From Microvirga thermotolerans (lineage in GTDB: Bacteria; Pseudomonadota; Alphaproteobacteria; Rhizobiales; Beijerinckiaceae), in assembly GCF_009363855.1 (NCBI RefSeq), contig NZ_CP045423.1, positions 1,270,001 through 1,334,000 of the forward strand: 64,000 bases of DNA, read 5' to 3'. The notes under the pieces are model-generated. The model saw nothing but the letters and a program-made list of their open reading frames with translations. It searched no databases and was not told where the DNA came from. Of the stretch, positions 16,613 through 21,885 are shown one piece after another (within the stretch, counting starts at the first letter, position 1; each line of letters begins with the position of its first letter). The position numbers were made by a program, and so were the translations under genes.

Positions 16613-16630
16613 GACCAGCCGTTGATCCCC

Positions 16631-16818
16631 GCGGGAGAGACCGGACGGAACGTCCGGCGCCGAAGGCGCAACCGCCCCGGAAACGCTCAGGCCAAAGGAC
16701 CGCGCGGGAGCTGGCACTCTGGAAAGCGGCGACGTCGCGAGACGTCGCCCACCGACGGGCGTAACCCGGCGCGCAGGCGCCCGGGGAAATCTCTCAGGTC
16801 TCGGGACAGAGGGGGCGC
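16631..16818 (+). ncRNA. Tandem glycine riboswitch (gcvT-type)
   Basis: Two glycine aptamers in series. The first (about 16631-16708) shows the hallmark GCGGGAGAGACCGG start, GCCGAAGGCGCAACCGCCCC and the AAACGCTCAGGCCAAAGGACCGC strand. The second (about 16715-16818) starts CTCTGGAAAGC, carries CACCGACGGGCGTAACC and GGGGAAATCTCTCAGGT and closes with GGACAGAGGG. A CGGGCC/GGCCCG hairpin (16823-16839) and a GAGGGAAG ribosome binding site follow, 52 nt before gcvT. In known gcvT riboswitches glycine binding turns expression on; here that is inference. Confidence 0.95.
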
Positions 16819-16869
16819 TGAACGGGCCGGCAAGGCCCGGTGAAACGCGCGCCTTTTGAGGGAAGTCCC

Positions 16870-18012
16870 ATGGCCGAGCCTGCCCGCGCCGACGAGCCGC
16901 TCCTGAAAACCCCGCTCCATGCCGAGCATGTCGCCCTCGGGGCCCGCATGGTGCCCTTCGCCGGGTACGACATGCCGGTCCAGTATCCCACGGGCATCCT
17001 GACCGAGCACAACTGGACCCGCGAGCACGCGGGCCTCTTCGACGTCTCCCACATGGGCCAGGCGGCCCTTGCCGGCCCCGACCACGAGACGACCGCCCGG
17101 GCCCTCGAGGCGCTCGTGCCGGCGGACATCCTCAACCTCAAGCCGGGCCAGCAGCGCTACTCCCAGCTCCTCTCCGAGGAGGGCGGCATCCTGGACGACC
17201 TGATGGTCACCCGTCCCGCCGGCGAGGAGGAGAAGGGGTATCTCTATCTCGTCGTGAACGCCTCCATGAAGGAGGCCGACTATGCCCACATGAGCGCCCG
17301 GCTGCCGCAGGGCGTCTCCCTGGTGCGCGGCGACGACCGGGCGCTCCTCGCCCTCCAGGGCCCCTCCGCCGAGGGCGTGCTCCAGCGCCTGGGAAGCGCG
17401 GCCGCTTCCCTGAGCTTCATGATGTCCGGCTGGTTCGACGTCGCGGGCCTGCGCTGCCACGTCTCCCGTTCCGGCTACACGGGGGAGGACGGGTTCGAGA
17501 TTTCCGTGAAGGCGGAGGATGCGGCCGCGCTCTGGCGCAGGCTCCTGGCGGATCCGGAGGTGAAGCCCATCGGCCTCGGCGCCCGCGATTCGCTGCGCCT
17601 CGAAGCGGGCCTGTGCCTTTACGGCCACGACATCGACGCCACGACCTCGCCCGTCGAGGCGGGCCTGCTCTGGTCCATCCAGAAGCGCCGCCGGGAGGAG
17701 GGGGGCTTCCCCGGCGCCGCCCGCATCCAGCGCGAGATCCGGGACGGGGCGGCGCGCGTCCGGGTCGGGCTGAAGCCCGAGGGCCGGACTCCCGCGCGGG
17801 AGGGCACCCTCATCACCACGCCCGACGGGCGCGAGGTCGGGATCGTGACCTCCGGCGGCTTCGGCCCCACCGTCAACGGCCCGGTCGCCATGGGCTACGT
17901 CTCGCGGGACGTCTCGGCCGTCGGAACCGACCTTCACCTCATGGTGCGCGGCAAGCCGGTTCCGGCCAAGGTCGCCGCCATGCCGTTCGCACCGCACCGC
18001 TACAAGCGCTGA
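16870..18012 (+). CDS. gcvT: Glycine cleavage system T protein (aminomethyltransferase)
   Basis: Transfers the methylene group from the aminomethyl-lipoyl arm of GcvH to tetrahydrofolate, releasing ammonia. The 380-residue protein has family motifs MPVQY, REHAGLFDVSHMGQ (about residues 55-68), the folate-site Asp region, and SRSGYTGEDGFEI (about 199-211). ATG at 16870 is chosen because GAGGGAAG sits right before it; an upstream in-frame ATG at 16840 lies inside the leader hairpin. First gene of gcvT-gcvH-osmC-gcvPA-gcvPB. Confidence 0.97.
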   Translation: MAEPARADEPLLKTPLHAEHVALGARMVPFAGYDMPVQYPTGILTEHNWTREHAGLFDVSHMGQAALAGPDHETTARALEALVPADILNLKPGQQRYSQLLSEEGGILDDLMVTRPAGEEEKGYLYLVVNASMKEADYAHMSARLPQGVSLVRGDDRALLALQGPSAEGVLQRLGSAAASLSFMMSGWFDVAGLRCHVSRSGYTGEDGFEISVKAEDAAALWRRLLADPEVKPIGLGARDSLRLEAGLCLYGHDIDATTSPVEAGLLWSIQKRRREEGGFPGAARIQREIRDGAARVRVGLKPEGRTPAREGTLITTPDGREVGIVTSGGFGPTVNGPVAMGYVSRDVSAVGTDLHLMVRGKPVPAKVAAMPFAPHRYKR

Positions 18013-18032: not shown

Positions 18033-18407
18033 ATGACCACGCGCTACACCAAGGACCACGAATACATCCGCGTCGAAGGCGATGCCGGCATCGTCGGCAT
18101 TTCCGACTATGCCCAGCAGCAGCTCGGCGACGTGGTGTTCGTCGAGCTGCCGAGCGTCGGCAAGTCCCTGTCGAAGGGCGACGAGGCCGCCGTCGTCGAG
18201 AGCGTGAAGGCGGCGAGCGAGGTCTACGCCCCCGTCTCCGGCGAGGTGCTCGAGGTCAATTCCAGCCTCGAGGAGAACCCCGGCACGGTCAACGAGGACC
18301 CCGCCGGCCGCGGCTGGTTCATGAAGATCCGCATCGCGAACCCGGGCGAGCTCGACGGCCTGATGACCGAGGAGCAGTACCAGGAATTCGTGAAGTCGAT
18401 CTCCTGA
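18033..18407 (+). CDS. gcvH: Glycine cleavage system H protein (lipoyl carrier)
   Basis: A 124-residue lipoyl-domain protein. The lipoylated lysine is K59 in VESVKAASE, flanked by the usual GDVVFVELP strand and GEVLEVN. Its swinging arm shuttles the aminomethyl group between GcvP and GcvT and is reoxidised by dihydrolipoamide dehydrogenase. It starts 20 nt after gcvT with AAGGGGG upstream. Confidence 0.98.
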   Translation: MTTRYTKDHEYIRVEGDAGIVGISDYAQQQLGDVVFVELPSVGKSLSKGDEAAVVESVKAASEVYAPVSGEVLEVNSSLEENPGTVNEDPAGRGWFMKIRIANPGELDGLMTEEQYQEFVKSIS

Positions 18408-18430: not shown

Positions 18431-18904
18431 GTGACGCACGCATACACCGCAAAGGTCTCCTGGAGCCGGGACGGGGCCGTCTTCACGGACAGCCGCTACA
18501 GCCGCGGCCACCGGTGGAGCTTCGACGGCGGCATCACGGTCCAGGCCTCGTCCGCGCCCTCCTCGGTGCCGCTGCCGTATTCCCTGGAGAACGCGGTGGA
18601 CCCCGAGGAGGCGCTCGTGGCGGCGGTTTCGAGCTGCCACATGCTCACCTTCCTTTCGCTCGCCGCCAAGAAGCGCTTCGTCGTCGATTCCTACGAGGAC
18701 GAGGCGCACGGCGTCATGACGAAGAACGGGAAGGGCAAGCTCTACGTCTCGAAGGTGACGCTGGATCCCAGGATCGTCTTCTCGGGCGAGAAGCGGCCCA
18801 GGCCCGAGCAGATCGCCGAGCTCCACCACCTCGCCCACCGGGAGTGCTTCATCGCCAACTCCATCCTCGCCGAGGTGGTGGTGGCGGGCATTCCGTCGCA
18901 CTAA
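18431..18904 (+). CDS. OsmC-family thiol peroxidase-like protein
   Basis: The 157-residue protein has the OsmC/Ohr fold signature: VDPEEALVAAVSSCHMLTFL (E60 and C69) and the second cysteine in HRECFIANS (C139), the two reactive cysteines that reduce organic hydroperoxides in this family. Start is a GTG 23 nt after the gcvH stop; the stop is 16 nt before gcvPA, so it lies inside the glycine cleavage operon under the same riboswitch. Ohr enzymes are known to use lipoyl groups as reductant, which makes the position next to gcvH suggestive. Confidence 0.93.
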   Translation: MTHAYTAKVSWSRDGAVFTDSRYSRGHRWSFDGGITVQASSAPSSVPLPYSLENAVDPEEALVAAVSSCHMLTFLSLAAKKRFVVDSYEDEAHGVMTKNGKGKLYVSKVTLDPRIVFSGEKRPRPEQIAELHHLAHRECFIANSILAEVVVAGIPSH

Positions 18905-18920
18905 CGCATAGGACCATCTG

Positions 18921-20261
18921 ATGCGCTATCTCCCCCTCTCCGATGCCGACCGCCGCGAGATGCTCGCGCGCATCGGCGTCCAGTCGATCGACGATCTCTT
19001 CGCCGACATTCCCAAGGACAAGCTCCTCAAGGACCTCGTGGATCTTCCGCGCCGCAAGGGCGAACTGGAGGTCGAGCGCATCCTCTCCCGCATGGCGTCG
19101 AGGAACGTGCCGGCCTCGTCCGTCCCCTTCTTCGTCGGGGCGGGCGCCTACAAGCACCATGTGCCGGCGACCGTCGACCACCTGATCCAGCGCTCCGAGT
19201 TCCTCACGAGCTACACGCCGTATCAGCCCGAGATCGCGCAGGGCACGCTGCAGTACCTGTTCGAGTTCCAGACCCAGGTCGCGGCGCTCACCGGCATGGA
19301 GGTGGCGAATGCCTCCATGTACGACGGCTCCACCGGCACCGGCGAGGCGGTGCTGATGGCGCACCGCGTCACCAAGCGCCGCAAGGCCGTTCTCTCCGGC
19401 GGCCTGCATCCGCACTACGCCGACGTGGTGAAGACCCTCTCGCACATGGCGAGCGACGAGGTCGTGGCGCTCGCGCCCGACGTTTCGGGAACCGAGGACA
19501 TCCTCTCCCGGATCGACGACAGCGTCTCCTGCGTCGTCGTGCAGTCGCCGGACGTGTTCGGCAACCTGCGCGACCTGAAGCCCATCGCCGAGAAGGCCCG
19601 CCGGCACGGCGCGCTCCTCATCGCCGTGTTCACGGAGGCCGTGTCGCTCGGCCTTCTTGAATCGCCCGGCAGCCAGGGCGCCGACATCGTGGTGGGCGAG
19701 GGCCAGTCCATCGGCAACGCGCTGAACTTCGGCGGGCCGTACGTGGGCCTCTTCGCGGCGAAGTCGAAGTACATCCGCCAGATGCCGGGCCGCCTCTGCG
19801 GCGAGACGGTGGACGCGGACGGCAAGCGCGGCTTCGTGCTGACGCTGTCCACCCGCGAGCAGCACATCCGCCGCGACAAGGCGACGTCGAACATCTGCAC
19901 CAATTCGGGCCTGTGCACGCTCGCCTTCACGATCCACATGACGCTGCTCGGCGAAGCCGGGCTGACGCGGCTCGCGCGCATCAACCACGCCAACGCGGTG
20001 AAGCTCGCCGACATGCTCGCCGGCGTGAAGGGCGTCGAGGTCCTGAACCGGACCTTCTTCAACGAGTTCACCGTGCGGCTTTCGAAGCCCGCGGCGGAGG
20101 TCGTGGAGCGCTTGGCGGAGAAGGGCGTGCTCGGCGGCGTGCCGGTCTCGCGGCTGATGCCGGGCGCCGGCCTCGACGACCTGCTGCTCGTCGCCTCCAC
20201 CGAAGTGAACACCGATGACGATCGCGCGGCCCTCGCTGCCGCCTTGAAGGAGGTTCTGTGA
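18921..20261 (+). CDS. gcvPA: Glycine dehydrogenase (decarboxylating) subunit 1
   Basis: N-terminal half of the P protein, 446 residues, starting [15 protein letters not shown] and including [17 protein letters not shown] and [13 protein letters not shown] motifs of the GcvPA family. With GcvPB it forms the PLP enzyme that decarboxylates glycine and loads the aminomethyl group on GcvH. Its TGA overlaps the ATG of gcvPB by one base (TGATG), with AGGAGG inside its last codons, so the two subunits are translationally coupled. Confidence 0.97.
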
Positions 20262-21832
20262 TGTTGAACCGCCAGGGACGACCCTCTTCCGCCGGCGAGG
20301 CCGGCACCAACGAGCATCCGACCTTCACGGGCAACAAGGCGCTCGCGCAGATCGAGCCGCTGATCTTCGAGATCGGCCGCGCGGACACGACGGGCGTCGA
20401 CCTCGACGAGCCGGAGGCCTTCACGCCGCGCCTCGGCGGCCTGGAGCGCAAGGACGCCATCGGCCTTCCCGGCCTCTCCGAGCCGGAGACGATGCGCCAC
20501 TACGTGCGCCTGTCCCAGATGAACTACGGCATCGACACGGGCCTCTTCCCGCTCGGCTCCTGCACGATGAAGCACAATCCGCGGCTCAACGAGCGCATGG
20601 CGCGCCTGCCGGGCTTCGCGGACGTGCACCCGCTCCAGCCGGTCTCGACGGTGAAGGGCGCGCTCGAGCTCATGAACGAGCTCGCCCGCTACCTCGTGAC
20701 GCTCACCAACATGACGACGGTCGCCCTCTCTCCCAAGGCCGGGGCCCATGGGGAGCTCTGCGGCATGATGGCGATCAAGGCCGCCATCGAGGCGCGCGGC
20801 GAGGGCAAGACCCGCAACGTCGTGCTGGTGCCGGATTCCGCGCATGGCACCAACCCCGCCACCGCGGCGCTGATCGGCTTCGTCGTGAAGCCGGTGCCGG
20901 CCCGCGACGACGGCTGGGTGCATGTGGAGGACGTGAAGAAGCTGCTCGGGCCGGACGTGGCCGCGATCATGCTCACGAACCCGAACACCTGCGGACTCTT
21001 CGAGAACCAGGTGGCGGAGATCGCCAAGGCGATCCACGACGCCGGCGCCTACTTCTATTGCGACGGCGCGAACTTCAACGCCATCGTCGGCAAGGCGCGT
21101 CCGGGCGATCTCGGCGTCGACGCCATGCACATCAACCTGCACAAGACCTTCTCGACGCCCCACGGCGGCGGCGGTCCGGGCTCCGGCCCGGTGGTGCTCT
21201 CCGCGCGGCTCGCGCCCTATGCGCCGGTGCCGTTCGTCACCCTCAAGGACGGCGAGCTCACCCTCGTGGAGCACGAGGCCGACGCGGCGGAGAAGCCCTT
21301 CGGGCGCATGACCGCCTTCCACGGCCAGATGGGCATGTACGTGCGCGCCCTGTCCTACATGCTCTCGCACGGCGCGGACGGCATGCGCCAGGCCTCCGAG
21401 GACGCGGTGCTCAACGCCAACTACGTCCGCGCCTCCCTGTCGGACCTGTTCTCGCAGCCCTTCGGCGACAAGCCCTGCATGCACGAGGTGCTGTTCGACG
21501 ACACCTGGCTGAAGGACACGGGCGTCACCACCCTCGACTTCGCCAAGGCGATGATCGACGAGGGCTATCACCCCATGACCATGTACTTCCCGCTGGTGGT
21601 GCACGGGGCGATGCTGATCGAGCCGACGGAGTCCGAATCGAAGGCGTCCCTGGACCTCTTCATCGCGACCCTGCGCGACCTCGCCATGGCCGCGAAGACG
21701 GGCAACGACAAGGCCCGCTTCACCGGCGCGCCCTTCCACGCCCCCCGGCGCCGCCTGGACGAAACCCGCGCCGCGCGCAACCCGGTGCTCAAGTGGACGC
21801 CGCCCGCACCCGTCGCCGAGGCGGCGGAGTAG
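20261..21832 (+). CDS. gcvPB: Glycine dehydrogenase (decarboxylating) subunit 2
   Basis: The PLP-binding half of the P protein, 523 residues. I see SCTMKHNPR, the DSAHGTNPA segment and INLHKTFSTPHGGGGPG, whose Lys forms the PLP aldimine. ATG at 20261 overlaps the gcvPA stop (TGATG) and is preceded by AGGAGG at 20248-20253; a GTG 3 nt upstream is less likely. Last gene of the operon, followed by a terminator. Confidence 0.97.
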   Translation: MLNRQGRPSSAGEAGTNEHPTFTGNKALAQIEPLIFEIGRADTTGVDLDEPEAFTPRLGGLERKDAIGLPGLSEPETMRHYVRLSQMNYGIDTGLFPLGSCTMKHNPRLNERMARLPGFADVHPLQPVSTVKGALELMNELARYLVTLTNMTTVALSPKAGAHGELCGMMAIKAAIEARGEGKTRNVVLVPDSAHGTNPATAALIGFVVKPVPARDDGWVHVEDVKKLLGPDVAAIMLTNPNTCGLFENQVAEIAKAIHDAGAYFYCDGANFNAIVGKARPGDLGVDAMHINLHKTFSTPHGGGGPGSGPVVLSARLAPYAPVPFVTLKDGELTLVEHEADAAEKPFGRMTAFHGQMGMYVRALSYMLSHGADGMRQASEDAVLNANYVRASLSDLFSQPFGDKPCMHEVLFDDTWLKDTGVTTLDFAKAMIDEGYHPMTMYFPLVVHGAMLIEPTESESKASLDLFIATLRDLAMAAKTGNDKARFTGAPFHAPRRRLDETRAARNPVLKWTPPAPVAEAAE

Positions 21833-21861: not shown

Positions 21862-21885
21862 CGGCCGGGGAAACCCGGCCGTTTT
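21862..21885 (+). terminator. Rho-independent terminator of the glycine cleavage operon
   Basis: Perfect 8-bp stem CGGCCGGG / CCCGGCCG with a GAAA loop followed by TTTT, 30 nt after the gcvPB stop. Confidence 0.9.

What the first reader, a model, noticed from the sequence alone, without database searches (positions are those of the whole stretch)
18431..18904. OsmC-family peroxidase gene embedded in the glycine cleavage operon
Directly seen: gcvT, gcvH, an OsmC-family gene with both catalytic cysteines (C69, C139), gcvPA and gcvPB are in one tight series (gaps 20, 23, 16 and overlap 1 nt) under a glycine riboswitch with a terminator at the end. Established: Ohr/OsmC-type peroxidases can be reduced by dihydrolipoyl groups, and GcvH carries a lipoyl arm. 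Inference: lipoylated GcvH may be the reductant, or the protein may protect the lipoyl cofactor, making a glycine-gated peroxide defence.
Basis: partly seen in the sequence, partly recalled or inferred. Interest (0 to 1): 0.72.

Follow-up and report, generated by a model that had tools for sequence, protein, structure and literature searches.

The report
Peroxidase gene inside glycine cleavage operon
In many soil bacteria related to rhizobia, a gene for a probable peroxide-destroying enzyme sits inside the operon that breaks down glycine, next to the gene for a lipoyl-carrying protein that could feed it electrons; a similar electron route has been reported in a protist, but this bacterial arrangement seems undescribed.

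Summary
Window 18431-18904 (+) encodes a 157-aa OsmC-superfamily protein between gcvH and gcvPA, in a gcvT-gcvH-osmC-gcvPA-gcvPB operon behind a glycine riboswitch. It is not a one-strain oddity. In 397 genomes of the order, 206 have the split-P operon and 47 of these, in 11 of 34 families, carry osmC in the same slot. So do all ten Microvirga and two Salinarimonas species recovered. Twenty operons sampled from the rest have the slot empty. All 58 distinct gcv-linked copies keep C69, C139, E59, R25 and H27, evolve under purifying selection, and are compatible with one clade. The start codon lies close to, or overlaps, the gcvH stop. No gcv-linked copy turned up outside the order among the loci examined. 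The best explanation is a two-cysteine, lipoyl-dependent peroxidase whose reductant is dihydrolipoyl-GcvH. [quoted passage not shown] What is new is the conserved bacterial operon with a complete glycine cleavage system, in which OsmC could also reoxidise GcvH directly. The protein belongs to an uncharacterised VCA0330-like subfamily; peroxidase activity was not tested.

The parts
16622..16712 (+). glycine riboswitch aptamer (RF00504)
   Evidence: cmscan 71 bits, gathering 32
16713..16820 (+). probable degenerate second glycine aptamer plus linker; below Rfam detection here
   Evidence: core-like motifs read by eye; no Rfam hit at E <= 1; a second aptamer passes Rfam in 8 of 17 relatives
16870..18012 (+). 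gcvT, aminomethyltransferase
   Evidence: NF010093 539 bits, cut-off 459
18033..18407 (+). gcvH, lipoyl carrier H-protein (ESVK lipoyl-lysine motif); only gcvH over the cut-off in the genome
   Evidence: TIGR00527 154.5 bits; motif; single copy
18431..18904 (+). osmC-family gene (157 aa; R25, E59, Cp C69, Cr C139)
   Evidence: Pfam OsmC 54.9 bits; PDB 2d7v E 5e-53; model pLDDT 92.9, 2d7v TM 0.93, Z 20.8
18921..20261 (+). gcvPA, glycine dehydrogenase subunit 1
   Evidence: NF001696 606 bits, cut-off 364
20258..21832 (+). gcvPB, glycine dehydrogenase subunit 2 (start GTG 20258 or ATG 20261)
   Evidence: NF003346 679 bits, cut-off 441
21862..21885 (+). terminator-like hairpin (8-bp stem, GAAA loop, TTTT)
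   Evidence: read from sequence; not listed by the stricter scan

Best explanation
The gene encodes a two-cysteine lipoyl-dependent hydroperoxide reductase that has been built into the glycine cleavage operon. C69 is oxidised by an (organic) hydroperoxide, C139 forms a disulfide with it, and the dihydrolipoyl arm of GcvH, the product of the gene immediately upstream, reduces the disulfide. GcvH is re-reduced either by lipoamide dehydrogenase from NADH, or by the glycine cleavage reaction itself, which leaves GcvH dihydrolipoylated after the T-protein step. Shown here: gene order, fold, residues, conservation, purifying selection and riboswitch. Inferred: peroxidase activity, GcvH as partner, and glycine-gated expression.
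For: Conserved slot in 47 of 206 split-P operons, 11 families. osmC start very close to gcvH: median about 8.5 nt in 58 linked copies, 5 overlapping; osmC to gcvPA is looser, 17-584 nt. R25, H27, E59, C69 and C139 invariant in all 58 linked copies; the Glu-to-Cp spacing of 10 equals Glu51-Cys61 of Xylella Ohr (residues in PMC5962072). Model matches VCA0330 at 0.9-1.1 A and the OsmC/Ohr fold, including Ohr mutants crystallised with dihydrolipoamide, 6ebg and 6ebd, Z 12.8. dN/dS 0.01-0.39 in 14 pairs. Literature: Ohr of C. glutamicum is reduced mainly by lipoylated systems (PMC4486171); recombinant OsmC works with lipoamide (PMC4069020); [quoted passage not shown] The genome encodes three lipoamide dehydrogenases over the cut-off and one GcvH.
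Against: No biochemistry for this subfamily: it fails the NCBIfam OsmC and SACOL1771 subfamily cut-offs. A protein with reported peroxide-stress phenotypes can still lack thiol peroxidase activity (FTN_1133, PMC4069020). GcvH of linked operons shows no sequence signature against 20 unlinked ones. Close relatives elsewhere stand alone with no gcvH nearby, so they must use other reductants. Operons repeatedly lack or lose osmC, so it is dispensable for glycine cleavage.
Confidence: 0.6

Rival explanations
1. A general hydroperoxide reductase that is merely co-expressed with glycine cleavage because its oxidant-sensitive parts need protection; electrons come from other donors (2-oxoacid dehydrogenase lipoyl domains, free lipoamide, thioredoxin, glutathione).
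For: Lipoyl E2 systems, and to a lesser degree thioredoxin, reduce Ohr (PMC4486171). Close stand-alone homologues and a 55% identical paralogue in the same genome have no neighbouring gcvH. No GcvH signature.
Against: The gene is preferentially abutted or coupled to gcvH, and the Trichomonas OsmC uses the H protein.
Confidence: 0.22
2. A maintenance enzyme for the GcvH lipoyl arm: its cysteines reverse oxidised or aldehyde-adducted dihydrolipoyl rather than scavenging bulk peroxide.
For: Position beside gcvH. Formaldehyde is a reported by-product of the glycine cleavage cycle (abstract of PMC7227101).
Against: The full peroxidase residue set is kept; no known OsmC member has such an activity (own knowledge).
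Confidence: 0.09
3. The link is to folate one-carbon chemistry of GcvT-family enzymes, not to lipoyl. Distant OsmC relatives sit beside DmdA-type (GcvT-fold) demethylase genes in other Alphaproteobacteria.
For: L206: DMSP demethylase (536 bits, cut-off 410) overlapping an OsmC gene; the same layout with a DmdA-like gene in L204.
Against: Those OsmC proteins form a different, remote clade (33-38% identity). In the gcv operon the tight neighbour is gcvH, not gcvT.
Confidence: 0.05
4. A passenger gene without functional tie to glycine cleavage.
For: Patchy presence: at least 6 forced changes on the operon tree.
Against: Same slot in 26 genera by group code, purifying selection, active-site invariance, linked copies compatible with one clade.
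Confidence: 0.04

Closest known systems
[quoted passage not shown] read only through PMC7946386 and the citation in PMC10332631)
   Same: An OsmC protein taking electrons through lipoylated H protein is the mechanism proposed here.
   Different: A protist organelle with an incomplete complex (title of the paper); here a bacterial operon with T, H, PA and PB and a glycine riboswitch, so a glycine-driven route is also possible.
Ohr lipoyl-dependent peroxidase (Xylella, Mycobacterium smegmatis, Corynebacterium)
   Same: Fold, Cp/Cr cysteines, Glu position; reduction by lipoylated proteins.
   Different: Donor there is SucB/E2 with Lpd or LpdA; Ohr is another subfamily (14-21% identity of Ohr structures to the model).
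VCA0330 (PDB 2d7v), Vibrio cholerae OsmC-like protein of unknown function
   Same: Same subfamily, 55% identity, TM 0.93.
   Different: No function assigned in the entry title; relatives outside the order were not found linked to gcv.
Classical OsmC (E. coli, 1nye/1qwi)
   Same: Fold and two cysteines.
   Different: 16-18% identity; NCBIfam OsmC subfamily cut-off not met.

Membership tests
OsmC/Ohr superfamily (PF02566) | match to the Pfam model above the gathering score | tested here: met
   54.9 bits against 27.5
OsmC/Ohr superfamily (PF02566) | two conserved redox cysteines (Cp on the central helix, Cr in the C-terminal part) | tested here: met
   C69 and C139 in 58 of 58 linked copies; C69 in helix 58-80, C139 just after helix 125-138
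OsmC/Ohr superfamily (PF02566) | OsmC fold | tested here: met
   pLDDT 92.9; 2d7v TM 0.93, Z 20.8
OsmC/Ohr superfamily (PF02566) | catalytic Glu and Arg near Cp | tested here: inconclusive
   E59 invariant with the Ohr spacing; R25 invariant in linked and close copies but its equivalence to Ohr Arg19 was not checked on coordinates
Classical OsmC subfamily (TIGR03562) | subfamily model cut-off | tested here: not met
   21.1 bits against 85.8
SACOL1771 subfamily (TIGR03563) | subfamily model cut-off | tested here: not met
   33.3 bits against 166.15
Lipoyl-dependent peroxidase | hydroperoxide reduction supported by lipoylated protein and Lpd | not testable with these tools
   needs enzymology
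Glycine cleavage system operon | T, H and P (split PA/PB) genes above equivalog or subfamily cut-offs, in one series | tested here: met
Glycine riboswitch-controlled operon | glycine aptamer upstream of the first gene | tested here: met
   RF00504, 71 bits; 16 of 17 linked relatives

The most novel reading that the evidence does not exclude
OsmC acts as an additional, NAD-independent terminal enzyme of a complete glycine cleavage system: dihydrolipoyl-GcvH made by the T-protein step is reoxidised directly by OsmC at the expense of hydroperoxide, so glycine oxidation itself powers peroxide removal (glycine + THF + ROOH giving CO2 + NH3 + CH2-THF + ROH + water), bypassing lipoamide dehydrogenase and NADH.
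Probability: 0.25. Interest if true: 0.72.

Novelty: new variant of a known kind. Interest (0 to 1): 0.52.

Why it matters
It gives a natural bacterial gene arrangement that ties a peroxidase to a defined lipoyl carrier protein, which makes the question 'which lipoylated protein reduces OsmC-type peroxidases in vivo?' directly testable. It would extend a route reported for one protist organelle to a large group of soil and plant-associated bacteria, and could show that glycine catabolism supplies reducing power against peroxides.

Tried and rejected
One-strain oddity: rejected. Natural GcvH-OsmC fusion protein among linked loci: none found. GcvH sequence signature of linked operons: none. gcv-linked OsmC outside the order: none among the best loci of the class and phylum samples; weaker matches there were not inspected. 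Lipoamide dehydrogenase genes beside stand-alone homologues: none found. Neighbours of stand-alone homologues by simple ORF picking: too noisy to use. A published report of osmC in a bacterial gcv operon: none found in the held open-access library, which misses most subscription papers. The two key papers (Nyvltova 2016, Cussiol 2010) are not held. The hand tabulation of GcvPA genomes uses an E-value limit of about 1e-130 on the table to separate split from single-chain P; borderline fragments could shift the 206 by a few.

Full report
Observation. The 157-aa product at 18431-18904 matches Pfam OsmC (54.9 bits, cut-off 27.5); the neighbours are gcvT, gcvH, gcvPA and gcvPB by NCBIfam equivalog or subfamily models. 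A glycine riboswitch aptamer lies at 16622-16712 (71 bits). The terminator is an 8-bp hairpin with only four T, which the tool's stricter rule does not list.

Distribution. The window lies in a complete 3.82-Mb genome with five OsmC-domain genes, one gcvH over the Pfam cut-off and three lipoamide dehydrogenases over the cut-off. Its nearest relative by OsmC identity is Microvirga puerhi (88%), so the genus is probably Microvirga (inference). All ten Microvirga records recovered, two Salinarimonas species and a Hyphomicrobiales MAG have gcvT-gcvH-osmC-gcvPA-gcvPB. In a sample of 397 genomes of the order, 85 have a homologue. Combining this with a GcvPA survey and fetched loci, 47 of 206 genomes with split P carry osmC between gcvH and gcvPA, in 11 of 34 families (8/8, 8/9, 16/19 and 3/3 in four families; 2/11 in the window's own). 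Twenty split-P operons without it show gcvH directly followed by gcvPA, -1 to 167 nt apart. In class-wide and phylum-wide samples the best homologues outside the order stand alone.

Evolution. The gcv-linked copies held together as one clade give a likelihood 10.4 units higher than the free tree (p-AU 0.613), so one origin is fully compatible with the data although not proven. On a GcvT+GcvH tree the presence of osmC needs 14 changes, at least 6 forced by well-supported branches: repeated loss, or repeated transfer into the same slot. dN/dS between close pairs is 0.01-0.39 for osmC, mostly near the values of its neighbours. The distance from gcvH stop to osmC start has a median of about 8.5 nt with five overlaps (58 copies; start codons picked automatically), whereas osmC to gcvPA is 17-584 nt (measured from alignment ends, so slightly overestimated). 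The tight partner is therefore gcvH.

Protein. R25, H27, E59, C69 and C139 are invariant in 58 of 58 linked copies. The spacing of E59 to C69 equals Glu51 to Cys61 of Xylella Ohr (residue roles from PMC5962072). The AlphaFold model (pLDDT 92.9) matches VCA0330 (2d7v) with TM 0.93 and Z 20.8, then E. coli OsmC and many Ohr proteins, including Ohr mutants crystallised with dihydrolipoamide (6ebg, 6ebd). It is not a classical OsmC or SACOL1771 protein by NCBIfam cut-offs: it belongs to an uncharacterised VCA0330-like subfamily.

Mechanism. [quoted passage not shown] original paper cited in PMC10332631, not held). Inference: in these bacteria lipoyl-GcvH is the reductant. Because the full glycine cleavage system is present, dihydrolipoyl-GcvH arising from the T-protein step could be oxidised by OsmC directly, without Lpd or NAD; with only H and L proteins this route would not exist. 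Riboswitch control would tie the peroxidase to glycine supply; 16 of 17 other linked operons tested have the aptamer.

Cautions. No activity was tested. FTN_1133, a protein implicated in peroxide resistance, proved to have no thiol peroxidase activity (PMC4069020). GcvH has no signature of co-adaptation. Osmotic, aldehyde or lipoyl-repair roles cannot be excluded. Remote OsmC relatives beside DmdA-type demethylases (L206, L204) show that OsmC genes can associate with GcvT-fold enzymes without lipoyl.

Verdict. A real, conserved and previously unreported (in the library searched) operon arrangement; the proposed chemistry has precedent; new variant of a known kind, with a testable new twist.

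Noticed in passing
L206:2155-3724 and L204:3554-5264: A DMSP demethylase (DmdA, over cut-off in L206) or DmdA-like gene is overlapped or directly followed by a remote OsmC-family gene in other Alphaproteobacteria, some with small AT-rich genomes; a separate OsmC association with a GcvT-fold enzyme.
   Followed up: partly
L185:3271-3690 (G000:C1:3635264-3635692): A 55% identical VCA0330-like paralogue elsewhere in the same genome, not linked to gcv; it groups with stand-alone copies.
   Followed up: partly
window 16713-16820: Sequence after the detected aptamer looks like a degenerate second glycine aptamer; Rfam misses it here but finds a second aptamer in 8 of 17 relatives.
   Followed up: partly
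L009 (Microvirga sp. VF16 plasmid pMVF16-1): The whole gcv-osmC operon lies on a 1.4-Mb plasmid.
   Followed up: no
L012, L013, L015 between gcvH and osmC: Three Microvirga operons have about 160 bases between gcvH and osmC.
   Followed up: no
L068:2742-6447: In an uncultured Litoreibacter a close stand-alone OsmC lies downstream of an FAD-dependent oxidoreductase/GcvT-domain fusion, separated by a pseudouridine-synthase-like ORF.
   Followed up: no
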